Assembly: GCF_002994745.2 (NCBI RefSeq)
Contig: NC_037092.1
Coordinates: 77,199,824-77,263,823, forward strand
Length of the DNA stretch: 64,000 nt
Origin: Rosa chinensis
Lineage: Eukaryota > Streptophyta > Magnoliopsida > Rosales > Rosaceae
Direction: 5' to 3'
This document shows positions 18,537-61,941 of the stretch, in pieces; position 1 is the stretch's first letter; each line of letters opens with the position of its first letter. A program made the position numbers and the translations under genes. The notes beneath the pieces are model-generated. The model made no database searches and was not told the origin of the DNA. It was given only the letters and a program-made list of their open reading frames with translations.

Positions 18537-18666
18537 CACTACAACAAAACTGGTCTTTTACGACACACAATGTGCGTCGTAAAAAACAACTTTACTGCAC
18601 AAAGAAGCGTGTCGTAAAATACCATATTGTAAAAGACAAATTTCTCGTGGCACACAAAATGTGCGC

Positions 18667-21048
18667 TGTAAGGCCCCGTACCTTAACATCTCTATGAAGT
18701 ACGTTTTTATTGGTTTTGACCGAGGAGTTGACTTTCTATTTTGTCTGTTACGTCGGTATATTCCTTGAGTACGTCGTAAGTTGCGAAAAATTTAGTTCGT
18801 GGACACGCAGTTTGTATCGATCGGAGTTTTTATGGGAAAGTTGAGATTTAAGTGTTGGAAGGTACTGTTCCTTATTAAAATGTTGGTTTTTTTTTTTAAG
18901 AAGGGGAATTAGTTAATTAAAAGGAGAGAGAGAGAGAGAGAATCGGACAGAGCCGACCTCCCGAACCCTCCTCCTTGCTTTTTCTTCTTCTCCCCGAACC
19001 GGACTCATTTTCCGGCGATTCACCTCAGCCGGACCTCGTTGGACTCGCCTCCGGCCACCGCAGCTTCCCCTCTTCATTCTCTTTCATCTCAGATATATGA
19101 TTTTAGCTGGGTAGCTTTGATTTGAACGATTTTGGGGGAAGATTGCCGATCGGGTTTGAGAACCTCCGGCTAGGTTTTTGATTTCTGGCAGTCTCCGGCC
19201 GGAAATCCTTGTGATTTTGGTTCTCTGTGAAGAGTTGAACACTTTTCCAACCTCCTTGTAGCTTGATTTGGCCGGAGGAAGTGGTAGGGATGATGAACAG
19301 TGGCTGTCGGGTTTTTTTTCCGATTTTGGGTTGATTTCCGACCACCTCTGCTTAGTTTTAGCTGTTATTGCAGGTTTAAAGATTGTTGGGTTTGCTGTGG
19401 TGAAGTGTTTAGGCTTGTTAGGTTGGCCGGAGATGGGGTTTGGTGTGATGGCGCATGAAACCACGCACCGCCACTGGTGGTGGCGTGTTGAGTGGTTATC
19501 AGGCTAGTTAACTACTTTGTGAGGTGGTGTTGTTGTTGGAACCTTCGGTTGGCATTATTTTAGACTTGTGATTAATTGTTTGGTTGGTTGTTTTGATGTT
19601 ATGGTTCACAAACTTCCGGGTTAATCCCTTGATAAATTGCTAATAGGCCTAGTACAGATTTAATCTACTTGGTTGAGAATTTGAAGTTGATATGGAGATT
19701 TTTAGAAAAGGAAATTATATTATTTTGGTGGATAATTGTGATTACGGATTTGAAATTTATTGTTTGAGAAGTTACAAGTGACTTTTGAAGGCTAAAAAGA
19801 AATTAGAGGATGTTGAGAATGTTAGGATTTCTGTTGTCGGATGTTAAATATCCAAATTGGAAGGATTCGAAATTGTAGAGGAATTGTTGAGTAACGAGTT
19901 ACTTAAATTTTCAAGGGAATGAGTTTTAATTCTTTAATGATTTCCTTTGTGAGGTTAATTTTATCATGCCCAATTATTACAGGACGTACTGAGCCCTCGA
20001 GCGAGGAGGACACGGCCAGGCAGCAGGATTAGCTGCGGGACTCACTTGTGAGTGGATTTTTATTTTGTTTAAATAATGCATGCAGCATGGTATTAAGTTT
20101 TCAGTTGGTTTATTATTTGAGAAAATGTGACTTTGTGGAAAGTAAAGGATTTAAAAAGAAAGCAGTTGACAAGGAGGCCAGTTTTGGCGCATGCGTATCT
20201 TACCTAGTTGGCAGTCCCTTCTAGGTAATAGTCTGGTTGGCAGTCCCATCCGATGCGTCATCTGGTTGGCAGTCCCTTCCAGATGACATGAGGTAGTTAG
20301 TTGGCAGTCTCTTCTAACTACCTGTGGCTAGTTGGCAGTCTCATCTAACCACCGCCTCCTATTCCTGTTGGCAGTCCATTCCGATGCGTCATCTGGGTGG
20401 CAGTCCCTCCCAGATGGCATGAGATGCCTAGGAAGCAGTCCTTCCTAGTCATCAAATGAGTTTTCTTGGAAAAGGATTGAGTTGGAATTATTATAGAGTG
20501 TCGCTGCATGTTGGTTTTGTTGAAAAGAGAAATGGGGAAGCATTCTATTAATTGTTTCAGATTTTGTTTCAGTTTTGTCCACTCACTCTAACGGTTTTTA
20601 AATGTTTTCCCCTGAGCCCTTCGTTTTCAAATGCCCAGATTTCAGATTTGCCGAGATCGCGTCTAGGCTCTAGAGACTTTGGAATCAGCGCTTCCGTTTT
20701 GTCTGTAGGTTATTACTTAACCTACCTTGTATGATATCGGCTTAGTTATTAGTGTTGGTCTGATAACCCTTTTTAAATTTGGTGGATGTTTTTGTTCGAA
20801 TTGATGTTTATTACGGAGGTTGTGATAAGATTTGAACTTTCTGAATGTAATATATATGCTTGGAATGTAAATATGGTATTGTGGGTTGAGTAGAAGTTAA
20901 AGTTTTAATCATGTCCAGGTTTGTGAACATTTTGGGTAGCCCATATTTAGAGGAGGTTCTGCCGATTTTTCGGTAGGATTTCACTTAACGTGGGCCCCGC
21001 AGGCTCGTATTCAGGATTACGGGATGTTTCTTGGGTCGGGTCGTGTCA
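18667..21048 (+). mobile_element. Solo LTR of about 2.38 kb with perfect 5-bp TSD
   Basis: Starts TGTAAGGCCCCG and ends GGGTCGTGTCA (TG...CA), flanked by TGCGC at 18662-18666 and 21049-21053. Removing it and one TSD restores a CACTA sub-terminal repeat (AATGTGCGCCGTAAAA), which proves insertion into that element. No gag or pol follows, so it is a solo LTR formed by LTR-LTR recombination. Terminal style and length suggest Ty3/gypsy, which is an inference. Contains a GA microsatellite (about 18925-18941) and a stem-loop array (20200-20448). Confidence 0.85.
20200..20448 (+). repeat. Array of stem-loops with constant loop and variable arms
   Basis: The core TTGGCAGTCYCWT (small variants) recurs eight times in 250 bp. 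In six units it is the loop of an inverted repeat with different arms: TTACCTAG/CTAGGTAA (20200-20228), GTCATCTGG/CCAGATGAC (20257-20287), AGGTAGTTAG/CTAACTACCT (20291-20323), GTGGCTAG/CTAACCAC (20324-20352, one mismatch), GTCATCTGG/CCAGATGGC (20388-20418, one mismatch), CTAGGAA/TTCCTAG (20428-20448). Units at about 20235 and 20366 have the core but unpaired flanks. The loop is 13 nt in the first five hairpins. Confidence 0.85.
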
Positions 21049-21303
21049 TGCGCCGTAAAAAACATTTTTTGCACATCATAAAACACTCGTTTGCGCGTCG
21101 TGAAAGATATTTTACAACTTTAATTGTGTGCCGTAAAAGACCATTTTGCGTGTCGTAAAAATTGTCTTCATTCAATCTTCTAATAGATAATACTTTCAAT
21201 TAAACCCTTTCATTCAAGCATAGTAAACAAAAGTATGCATGTAGTAAATTAGATCAATTAAATAACTTCATATTACAAAATCATAGTATAATTAAACTGG
21301 TTT

Positions 21304-59300: not shown

Positions 59301-61710
59301 TAACACTAACTTATCATCCTTTTGTTGTTGCGCTTGATTGCATGGCTTCTTCTTCTTCTTCTTCTTCTTTTGGGACTTAGTTTATCGAATTGAAAGATAT
59401 TTCTGAGGCTATTCTTGATTTTCATCAAAAATCCGCATCCCCCTTGAGAAGGAGGACTTAATTGAGGAGCCTGCTACCATACATTGGTTTCTAAATTGCT
59501 TGATGTCTTCGTGTGTGATAATGTTAAATTGGCTATTTATGTCTCAAATGAAAATAGGTTTTGGCAAGAAAAGGATTTTTGTTGTAATAGAATCTACTTC
59601 CAATTCTGTTTTTGGGTTCTACCTATTCAAGCCTTGAGCTTTCACCGATGGGCCAATTTAGTGATAATAGTATGTAGTTATCAACAAATTTTGGGGAAAG
59701 GGTTGACTTTGGTGTTTTTAGAAGACACTGATTTGCAAACTTTAGATGCTGGGTGTGAGCCTGATGGATTTGATGAAGAAATTGAAGGTATAATGGAACA
59801 ATTTGAACAGGTCAGTAGTGAAGATTTGGCAGCTAGTGATTCTGAGAAGCCAAACACATTGGAGTCATTTTGAGAACATTAAGGATGGATAGAGTAGTTG
59901 GAAGTAGACTTCACGAAACATAGAGCTATGATGAGTTGTAGGCAAGCTTGTCAACTTTTACTGAGTTCGATAAATACAGTAGCACAACTTCTATTTTCTC
60001 TTCATTTTTCTTCTCTCCAGGCTTTTTCTCTTCAAGCTAACAAGAATCACCGCAGCTAACTCTTCCATATTTTTTTTTTGTGCGCACTGCGTGGGTATAT
60101 GTATGTGCATTGTGCTTGTGTTTGAGGTAAGTACTATGAAGAGGAAAAGGTATGCGGCTTTAGCTTGTATGCTTGGAGTTGATCAAGAATAGCGTTTTAC
60201 TGTCTGTTCGTCTTGTTTTTCTCCTTTTTTTTTTTTTTTTTTGTGCATGGGCTGACTTATTAGGATATATCAATTTTGAGCAGGGCATGAACATGTCACA
60301 TGTTGGCTTGGCTTGTGCATTGCTTGACTTCCGTTATTCATTTTTTGATGTATTGTACATGGCATGACTCATGTGGTGATCTCAATATCTCTTTATGAGC
60401 TAGCTTGTGAATAATTGCTTGACTTCGTTCTACTCATGACTTGATTGCAAGAACCATGCTATTTGCAATAACATTAATTCCAACTACAGTGACTTGTAGA
60501 CTTGTAGACTTGTGAATTCTATGGGTGCATAAATGAATTCTTTGAGTATGAAAAAGCTTCTTGCTTGATATCTAGCATATAGATCTTTGCTTGACTAATT
60601 TACTGCATAGACATTTTGTTCAAGATCAATGACAATATCTGTAATTTTGCTGTGGGTGGTAGTTGACCACAAAACATAGGTCTAAGGTAATAGTTGTGGA
60701 AAGCTGTAGAAAAAGGATCTGGGATAGAGTTAAAATTCTTAAATTCTGGAGTTTGGACATGGATTTAGGAAAAGTTAAGTTTATGAAGCTGGTTCTGATA
60801 ATAAATGTGTGTGTTCACTACCGCGGTAAACATGGTAAAGAGTCTTGGTTCAAGGAAAGGTTTAAATGTGAGTTTTGGGTTTGAGTTGATATGGTTTGTT
60901 GTTGAAAAGTACTGTGTCTAAAGGATTGAATTTGTGGATCTCAAATTTTGTTGCTTGAAGTTGTGACTTCTCCATGGTAGAGGACACAAGGTACTGAAAA
61001 TGGCAAATACCATGCATGAACTAGACTAAGTGTACTAGCATGACTACAAGGATAAGCCTATAGTGTAACATAGAATTTGTGATTACTGCTTATGGGGTTT
61101 TGCTTGCTGCAGTTGTAAAACTTTCGACATAGTACTAATTATTTTGGTTTGACATCAGGCCTAATTTGGTAGAGCTCAGCGTTTTGATCAATGTTGAGGT
61201 TTAGGTTATGGAGTAGAATAGTTACTGTAGTAGAAGTTTTGGCTACGGCAAGAAGCTTTCTATTGTTGTAGTGAAAGTGTGAAACATGACTGGGAGCTGC
61301 GGGGAGAAAGAATAATCCATAATACAAATCATAGTATTAAGACTAGCATTCGTTGTTTGGCTTGGATAAAGACTTGGAATAAAAATGTCATTTCGACATT
61401 AGAATCACTTAACCATGGTGGAAAACAATGACTATGGCATATTTATGATCATGGCTGACACAAAGGCTTGGGAGAGGTATTGGCTTTTTCATACGTGAGA
61501 GAAGGGAATATTGAAATATATGTGCTTGAACTACAATATATGATGATCACATGAATGTACTAGGGACTAAATTAAAACTTCACAGTAAGCCTGAACAAGA
61601 TCACCATTAGTTAGCCCCCAAGTGTCATAGCATATTACTATGAGATACTGATTGTTTTTTAGTGTGATGATGGATAATGCCTTTTGCTTGGAGTTGGCTT
61701 GATTGAATAG
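56341..61710. other. Gene-poor AT-rich region, no supported gene
   Basis: Rich in GCTTG, GGCATG and TTGGC words, with many poly-T tracts (57207, 59103, 60225). CATTAGCCCCCTTG at about 56465 is of the kind that recurs at 61612 and 63637. An open frame at 59484-59873 ends in an acidic stretch (DGFDEEIEGIMEQFEQVSSE) that looks protein-like but has no recognisable domain. No RNA genes, TIRs or TSDs found. Confidence 0.45.
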
Positions 61711-61941
61711 TGATTGCTTGCTCTAATGCTTTTGGCTTGATTGAGTATTACTTGCTTGTTCTAATGCTTTTGGCCTGATTGAGTATTGCTTGCATATTCT
61801 AATGGTTTTGGCTTAACAGAGTATTAGTTGCTTGTTCTAATAGTTTTAGCTTGATTGAGTATTGCTTGCTTGTTCTAATGCTTTTGGCCTAATTGAGTAT
61901 TGCTTGCTACTTGATTGAGTAGTGATTGCTTGTCCTAATTG
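61711..61941 (+). repeat. 38-bp tandem repeat, five full units plus partials
   Basis: Unit consensus TGCTTGCTTGTTCTAATGCT followed by TTTGGCTTGATTGAGTAT. Units start at 61711, 61749, 61787, 61825 and 61863, each exactly 38 bp with a few substitutions; partial units follow to 61941. A minisatellite in otherwise unannotated DNA. Confidence 0.92.

What the first reader, a model, noticed from the sequence alone, without database searches (positions are those of the whole stretch)
20200..20448. Stem-loop array with constant loop and covarying arms inside a solo LTR
Eight copies of a 13-nt core TTGGCAGTCYCWT lie in 250 bp. In six, the flanking arms pair with each other (8, 9, 10, 7/8, 8/9 and 7 bp) although arm sequence differs from unit to unit. 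A normal tandem repeat would conserve the arms; here the pairing and loop are kept while the arm sequence changes, which is compensatory covariation. Two units with unpaired flanks both carry CCGATGCGTC and look recombined. Possible meanings: a structured RNA element of the parental retrotransposon (packaging, dimerisation, protein-binding loops), or a hairpin-generating replication process. I know of no described feature with this form.
Basis: seen in the sequence. Interest (0 to 1): 0.8.

Follow-up and report, generated by a model that had tools for sequence, protein, structure and literature searches.

The report
Conserved hairpin array in retrotransposon LTR
A plant jumping gene carries a row of small hairpins that show the same loop but have different stems; such rows recur in great number in the genome and are kept in versions of the element whose surrounding sequence no longer matches, so the row probably folds to do a job, perhaps marking the element's RNA.

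Summary
The array is real and not chance. Eight 29-nt units sit at 20200-20452 in a 2382-bp solo LTR (18667-21048, 5-bp duplication). Six form hairpins: 8-9 bp arm, 2x2 mismatch, GG:CC, loop CAGTC. The genome holds 3963 overlapping three-unit matches against 1 for the reversed pattern. Copies lie in paired LTRs of a Ty3/gypsy element (L010) and a non-autonomous one (L009). In 88 distinct arrays (740 units) pairing far exceeds chance and ends at arm position 9-10. LTR groups whose flanks no longer align share the array.

The covariation claim is partly right. Between unit types the arms differ yet pair (0 of 200,000 permutations). Between copies of one type there is little compensation (own arms 5.54 of 8, swapped 5.32; no clear excess on trees). 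Two types are conserved with mismatched arms. Strand and molecule are undecided.

The array lies between splice-donor-like and acceptor-like sites. Best reading: a multivalent RNA-hairpin element of the unspliced leader, perhaps a packaging mark. Function is inferred. Nearest known: Sirevirus LTR palindromes; viral multi-stem-loop packaging signals.

The parts
18667..21048 (+). Solo LTR, 2382 bp, TG...CA, LTR group I of a Ty3/gypsy element
   Evidence: relative L010 has the LTR pair, gag, protease, RT, RNase H, a Tf2-1-like integrase SH3 and a chromodomain match below its curated cut-off
18662..18666 (.). target-site duplication TGCGC, left
21049..21053 (.). target-site duplication TGCGC, right
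19983..20047 (+). predicted small exon (ACAG | 65 nt | GTGAGT); borders of this kind also in groups II and III
   Evidence: prediction, no RNA data
20048..20055 (+). splice-donor-like GTGAGTGG; motif within 3 substitutions upstream of the array in 33 of 35 group I, 14 of 14 group II, 15 of 20 group III copies
   Evidence: reversed flanks: 2 of 35, 0 of 14, 1 of 20
20200..20228 (+). hairpin 1 (type A), 8-bp arm
20229..20257 (+). unit 2, arms mostly unpaired: fusion of type B left arm and type C right arm
20258..20286 (+). hairpin 3 (type D), 9-bp arm
20293..20321 (+). hairpin 4 (type E), 10-bp arm
20324..20352 (+). hairpin 5 (type F), 8-bp arm with one C.A mismatch
20360..20388 (+). unit 6 (type G), conserved but with mismatched arms
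20389..20417 (+). hairpin 7 (type H), G-C at core 1/13, one G.U
20424..20452 (+). hairpin 8 (type I), core fully paired GAAG-CAGTC-CTTC
20573..20645 (+). second conserved microdomain shared by LTR groups I and II
20917..20918 (+). splice-acceptor-like AG; counterpart ..CTACAG|GTTTTGGG.. in group II (14 of 14 within 4 edits)
   Evidence: prediction, weak in group I (23 of 35 v 6 of 35 reversed)

Best explanation
It is a cis-acting structural element of an LTR retrotransposon: a row of usually 7 to 11 short units, most of them hairpins offering the same GG(CAGUM)CC head on an arm whose letters matter little as long as they pair. Shown: the array, its pairing, its spread, and its presence in LTR groups whose neighbouring sequence no longer aligns. 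Inferred: that it acts as RNA on the sense strand; that it lies downstream of the promoter in a leader intron, so only unspliced genomic RNA carries it; and that the repeated heads bind a protein in several copies, most probably the element's Gag, to mark genomic RNA for packaging.
For: Pairing 79.4% of cells v 63.6% shuffled (0 of 500) and 41-55% for slid registers, all 10 pairs with two-sided changes (70 of 352 distinct units). Watson-Crick pairing 56-58% at arm positions 5-8 v 26-29% shuffled, at chance (21 v 20%) by position 10 (no type dropped there). Type-level permutation: own 65 of 81 v mean 38, 0 of 200,000 (I/II); 71 of 90 v 43, 0 of 200,000 (III). Mean arm pairing 0.634 v 0.276, max 0.417 of 150, under a tree null. 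Loop CAGTC in 412 of 472 detected units. Flanks between groups near shuffle level while the array aligns locally at 80-91% between I and II. Donor-like sites upstream and acceptor-like sites downstream. TATAAATTTG in L009 about 1.6 kb upstream of the array. A non-autonomous element (L009) keeps the array.
Against: No RNA, binding or packaging data. Little compensation within unit types; no stem pair was significant by mutual information against a tree null. In one search the count of further pair types was not unusual (81 of 500 shuffles reached it). The minus strand had the better fold z in 8 of 12 arrays, and two group III arrays fold weakly on the sense strand (z -0.8, -2.0). G.U is not clearly favoured over A.C (30 v 22, p = 0.17). 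Two unit types have conserved mismatches. Splice sites are predictions; the group I acceptor is loose (23 of 35, reversed control 6 of 35).
Confidence: 0.4

Rival explanations
1. A selfish or neutral palindromic minisatellite: units spread by unequal exchange and by LTR-to-LTR recombination during reverse transcription, and imperfect palindromes are repaired from their own other arm (hairpin-templated correction). Pairing is then a by-product.
For: Unit number varies (4-13 detected), even between the two LTRs of L010 (9 v 8); fusions and higher-order duplications occur; the 5' part of the array looks exchanged between groups I and II; no clear excess of compensation within types.
Against: T.T and C.C mismatches beside the paired head persist instead of being repaired, and types C and G keep mismatched arms in all groups. 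The order of types is largely kept (and by eye). The array is kept where flanks are not.
Confidence: 0.25
2. A DNA-level regulatory palindrome cluster, as proposed for Sirevirus LTRs: binding sites, or a source and target of small RNAs, controlling LTR transcription or silencing.
For: Palindromic arrays in LTRs are known in Sireviruses (PMC2829016); no strand preference found here.
Against: Arm letters differ between units, which suits structure rather than sequence-specific DNA binding; the array lies in the 3' part of the LTR, downstream of the TATA-like box of L009; arms of 8-10 bp are short for Dicer (general knowledge, not tested).
Confidence: 0.2
3. A splicing-control element: the hairpins sit in a leader intron and regulate how much RNA stays unspliced.
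For: Donor-like and acceptor-like motifs flank the array in most copies, above reversed-flank controls.
Against: No transcripts examined; donor-to-array distance varies from about 140 to 1240 nt in the rows shown.
Confidence: 0.12

Closest known systems
Sirevirus LTR repeated motifs (RM boxes), PMC2829016 (passages and section 9 read)
   Same: High-copy palindromic units clustered in an LTR of a plant retrotransposon; 8 or more units; one listed RM (Sorghum) contains GGCAGTGCC, close to the GGCAGTMCC head here; variant units TCGGCAGTCCCGT carry a CGG...CCG frame.
   Different: Sireviruses are Ty1/copia; here Ty3/gypsy. There the stem is the constant part (commonly >85% identity within an element); here the loop is constant and the stems differ. 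There the boxes lie upstream of the TATA box in the upper half of the LTR; here in the 3' part. A passage of PMC5311732 calls the maize Sirevirus palindrome regions highly variable in sequence; here the array is among the best kept parts.
Multiple stem-loop packaging signals of RNA viruses (PMC6281560, passages read)
   Same: Several stem-loops sharing a recognition motif while other letters vary.
   Different: Dispersed through genomes there, one contiguous array in an LTR here; no protein binding shown here.
Retroviral leader packaging signals downstream of the splice donor (general knowledge)
   Same: Leader position below a donor-like site, several hairpins.
   Different: Here the donor is predicted, the array lies within the LTR, and unit number varies.
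BARE separate RNA pools for translation and packaging (PMC3735527, passages read)
   Same: A plant LTR element in which spliced and packaged RNAs differ, with a parasitic partner that keeps dimerization and packaging signals.
   Different: Ty1/copia; its intron lies in gag; the term stem-loop has 0 occurrences in that paper's main text.

Membership tests
Sirevirus RM boxes | Host element is a Ty1/copia Sirevirus | tested here: not met
   L010, between array-bearing LTRs: Retrotrans_gag and Ty3_capsid; then protease, RT, RNase H; then Tf2-1-like SH3 and a sub-threshold chromodomain
Sirevirus RM boxes | Palindromic units whose stem sequence is constant between copies | tested here: not met
   arms differ between unit types; loop constant
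Sirevirus RM boxes | CGG-CCG core signature | tested here: inconclusive
   seen in TCGG...CCGT variants only; the common cores are TTGG...CCTT and TCGG...CCCT
Sirevirus RM boxes | Located upstream of the TATA box in the upper LTR half | tested here: not met
   array at LTR positions 1534-1786 of 2382; the TATA-like box of L009 lies about 1.6 kb upstream of its array; promoter not proven
Multi-stem-loop packaging signal | Repeated stem-loops with shared loop motif and variable stems | tested here: met
Multi-stem-loop packaging signal | Binds capsid or Gag and directs packaging | not testable with these tools
   needs binding and particle assays
Leader packaging signal below a splice donor | Present only in unspliced genomic RNA | tested here: inconclusive
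   donor-like and acceptor-like motifs above control; no transcript data
Ordinary tandem repeat | Whole unit conserved at similar level | tested here: not met
   not reported by Tandem Repeats Finder; arms differ between units
Rfam families | Match at gathering score | tested here: not met
   0 in the window; best sub-threshold match in 20180-20470 E 0.64, 14.2 bits v gathering 43

The most novel reading that the evidence does not exclude
A plant Ty3/gypsy lineage carries a modular packaging (and perhaps dimerization) platform built from tandem hairpins with one shared protein-binding head, placed in a leader intron so that only unspliced genomic RNA is marked. The cassette is exchanged between autonomous and non-autonomous LTR families. 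The conserved GATGCGTC beside types C and G, self-complementary with two G.U pairs (my reading of the letters), could serve RNA dimerization.
Probability: 0.25. Interest if true: 0.8.

Novelty: new variant of a known kind. Interest (0 to 1): 0.6.

Why it matters
How plant LTR retrotransposons tell their genomic RNA from their mRNA is little known. A compact, very abundant array with a constant loop and changing stems would give a direct handle: the hairpins can be probed, bound and mutated one by one. It would also show how a non-autonomous family can share the autonomous one's machinery. Even under the neutral reading it is a large natural data set on how palindromes persist.

Tried and rejected
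Chance: rejected by shuffles and permutations and by genome counts with reversed control (4100 v 11; 3963 v 1). Known RNA family: none at gathering score. Ordinary tandem repeat. Hairpins elsewhere: a covariance model searched over the window, L009, L010 and L028 gave 44 matches at E < 0.01, all inside LTR arrays (8 window, 20 L009, 16 L010, 0 L028), and one stray at E 0.62 in L009; the model was built from units of some of these arrays.

Results against the covariation reading: swap between LTR groups 5.54 v 5.32; mutual information against a tree null (60 simulations), one column pair significant and it is not a stem pair; same-branch double changes 23 v 50 expected, of which pair-to-pair 7 v 5.7. 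Strand test: a first count (25 v 13, majority plus recurrent) suggested sense-strand RNA but faded with more copies (30 v 22, p = 0.17). Minus-strand fold z was better in 8 of 12 arrays. Orthologue alignment of types E and F: 88.8 v 84.7% paired, 0 of 500; rows were 30 of 40 E and 18 of 48 F, picked by hand, and E and F are themselves different types.

Rows and filters: one search used 70 of 352 distinct units, the first 70 of a random sample of 130. Searches dropped units more than 6 letters from every prototype. The strand counts used 8 of 10 types (C and G left out). The 472 units include some false ones (a spurious L039 cluster and '?' units). Types D and H have nearly the same arms, so the types are not fully independent. 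L027 was left out of later sets because L059 covers the same array. The number of arrays in the genome was not counted.

Splice-like motifs were first counted without a control; one search added reversed and shuffled flanks: donor 2/35, 0/14, 1/20 reversed and 8/35, 2/14, 1/20 shuffled; acceptor 6/35, 0/14, 1/20 reversed and 1/35, 1/14, 2/20 shuffled (groups I, II, III). GT was intact in 32 of 33, 13 of 14 and 12 of 15 donor hits.

Literature: searches returned no paper; some searches returned listings in which I saw no description of such an array in a Ty3/gypsy LTR (titles and abstract starts). Passages were read in PMC2829016 (plus its section 9), PMC3601003, PMC3735527, PMC6281560 and PMC5311732. 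The Genome Research 2016 paper on Sirevirus palindromes was not read (recalled, and seen as a reference in PMC5311732). The name Rosa for the genome is recalled from size only, not tested.

Full report
Observation. The window is part of a 515-Mb genome in 53 contigs; its LTR retrotransposons and genes point to a plant (inference; Rosa is recalled from size and untested). At 20200-20452 eight 29-nt units lie in a row inside a solo LTR, 18667-21048, with TG...CA ends and a TGCGC duplication on each side. Six of eight units pair: Watson-Crick counts in the first eight arm positions are 8, 2, 8, 8, 7, 2, 7, 7. The own-arm sum of 49 is reached by 0.01% of all 40,320 re-pairings of left and right arms. 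The RNA fold has z = -5.93; on exactly 20194-20450 it is -5.2 on the plus and -5.5 on the minus strand. In fixed 290-nt windows along the LTR the strongest are the minus strand of 19247-19536 (-4.6) and the plus strand of 20697-20986 (-3.3); the fixed window holding most of the array, diluted by flank, gave -2.3 and -2.7.

Architecture. The units follow one plan: an arm of 8-9 bp, a 2x2 mismatch (mostly T.T/T.T, or T.T/C.C in group III), two G:C pairs and a five-letter loop, CAGTC, or mostly CAGTA in group III. That is 29 nt, equal to the commonest spacing, so hairpins abut; other spacings (30-31, 35-36) leave a short linker. Of 472 detected units in the first set, some of them false, 412 have the loop CAGTC. 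In the 454 distinct units of 88 arrays, Watson-Crick pairing at arm positions 1 to 10 is 83, 73, 82, 50, 56, 56, 58, 58, 48, 21%, against 82, 46, 59, 43, 26, 29, 26, 26, 33, 20% when right arms are dealt out anew (no unit type left out). Position 1 is nearly constant and position 10 is at chance; positions 2, 3 and 5 to 9 carry the signal.

Spread. The exact 13-mer occurs 4100 times, its reversed control 11 times. A three-unit pattern occurs 3963 times, control once; these overlap, so they are not a number of arrays. A DNA search had 1244 first-look candidates, of which 40 were scored. L010 is a Ty3/gypsy element with arrays in both LTRs (94% alike; 9 and 8 units) and matches to gag, protease, RT, RNase H, an integrase-type SH3 and a chromodomain below its cut-off. 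A TGGTATCAGAGC stretch follows its 5' LTR (that this is a primer-binding site is recalled). L009 has LTRs 99.9% alike and no stop-to-stop frame above 145 aa, so it looks non-autonomous.

Three LTR groups. By neighbouring sequence and core the copies fall into group I (window, L010; 35 arrays), II (L009, L011; 14) and III (20 arrays with TACCC cores). Between the window and seven group II and four group III copies, 200-nt flanks are near shuffle level (0.57-0.64 v 0.58-0.60), except L083 at 0.64 and 0.70. The array aligns locally at 80-91% between the window and five group II copies over 189-283 nt, and at 75% with L027; global array identity is 0.56-0.82 because unit numbers differ. A second block, window 20573-20645, is also shared. 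The order of unit types is largely kept in groups I and II and, by eye, in III. Part of the sharing may be exchange rather than selection: some group II arrays start like group I (cgtatcttacctag) and others like group III (gcattacctag).

Covariation, for and against. Between unit types the evidence is strong. On 70 units all ten pairs have two-sided changes, 79.4% of cells pair v 63.6% shuffled and 41-55% slid; the weaker measure, further pair types, was reached by 81 of 500 shuffles. With one left and one right arm per type, own pairing is 65 of 81 v 38 for re-pairings in groups I/II and 71 of 90 v 43 in III, 0 of 200,000 each; for positions 4-9 alone the fractions are 5e-6 and 2e-5. Leaving out types C and G, arm position 5 shows all four Watson-Crick pairs among seven types. 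Between copies of one type the evidence is thin. Majority letters differ on both sides in a few places (E and F position 8, I core 3/11, H position 5; F and H by plurality only), and the E plus F alignment exceeds its shuffles. But swapping arms between groups costs little (5.54 to 5.32). Tree simulations show no clear excess of double changes in any type, although overall pairing across all types (0.634) exceeds every simulation (max 0.417 of 150). Mutual information against the same kind of null gave no stem pair. So the stems look old and held; how they diverged is not seen in present copies. Types C and G are mismatched at arm positions 4, 5 and 7 in all groups yet conserved in sequence, which a simple all-hairpin model does not explain.

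Which molecule. G.U-type against A.C-type variants do not separate the strands (30 v 22, p = 0.17), and the minus strand had the better fold z in 8 of 12 arrays. I favour sense RNA because the array seems to lie in the transcribed leader. L009 has TATAAATTTG followed by a CT-rich stretch, about 1.6 kb upstream of its array and, if its LTR starts at the TGTGACG that follows a purine-rich stretch, about 260 nt into the LTR (my reading). Upstream of the array a small block bounded by ACAG|G-like and GTGAGTGG-like borders recurs: the inside differs between groups, while group II shows TACAG|GG about 62 nt before TACT or TACA|GTGAGTGGAC in most of its 14 copies and several group III copies show TCAG|GA. 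The donor-like motif is found in 33 of 35, 14 of 14 and 15 of 20 copies (reversed flanks 2, 0, 1), and an acceptor-like motif downstream in 23 of 35, 14 of 14 and 11 of 20 (reversed 6, 0, 1). If these are splice sites, the array is in an intron of about 870 nt in the window and marks unspliced RNA only. This is prediction.

Mechanism and verdict. The best reading is a multivalent hairpin platform in the unspliced leader, recognised through loop and stem rather than arm letters, most likely for packaging; its retention by a non-autonomous element fits. The main rivals are a neutral palindromic minisatellite, a DNA-level or small-RNA element as in Sireviruses, and a splicing regulator. Compared with Sirevirus RM boxes (PMC2829016), the element class, the constant part (loop instead of stem) and the position differ; a GGCAGTGCC in the listed Sorghum RM is a curious likeness that I did not follow. 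I saw no description of such an array in a Ty3/gypsy LTR, within an open-licence library and listings only. I file it as a new variant of a known kind.

Noticed in passing
G000 C7:24302117-24647596: Group III type matches recur every 15-55 kb or so over about 350 kb with nearly identical units, suggesting a local amplified segment that carries one old LTR copy along.
   Followed up: no
window 18550-18666 and 21049-21160: The solo LTR is inserted within another repeat with recurring GTGCGTCGTAAAA-like motifs, perhaps a MITE.
   Followed up: no
window about 20252-20259 and 20383-20390 (beside the two unpaired units): The conserved flank contains GATGCGTC, self-complementary with two G.U pairs, beside both unpaired units.
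   Followed up: no
L010 5' and 3' LTR arrays: The two LTRs of one element differ by one unit (type B lost by fusion), the same fusion as in the window.
   Followed up: partly
L024 about 1065-1600 (element orientation): An array split by an insert of about 500 nt between units C and D.
   Followed up: no
window 61694-61908: Tandem array of a 38-bp unit, 5.7 copies.
   Followed up: no
G000 C1:11193453-11193560: Units with a CCCCT core, intermediate between the CCCTT and TACCCT groups.
   Followed up: no
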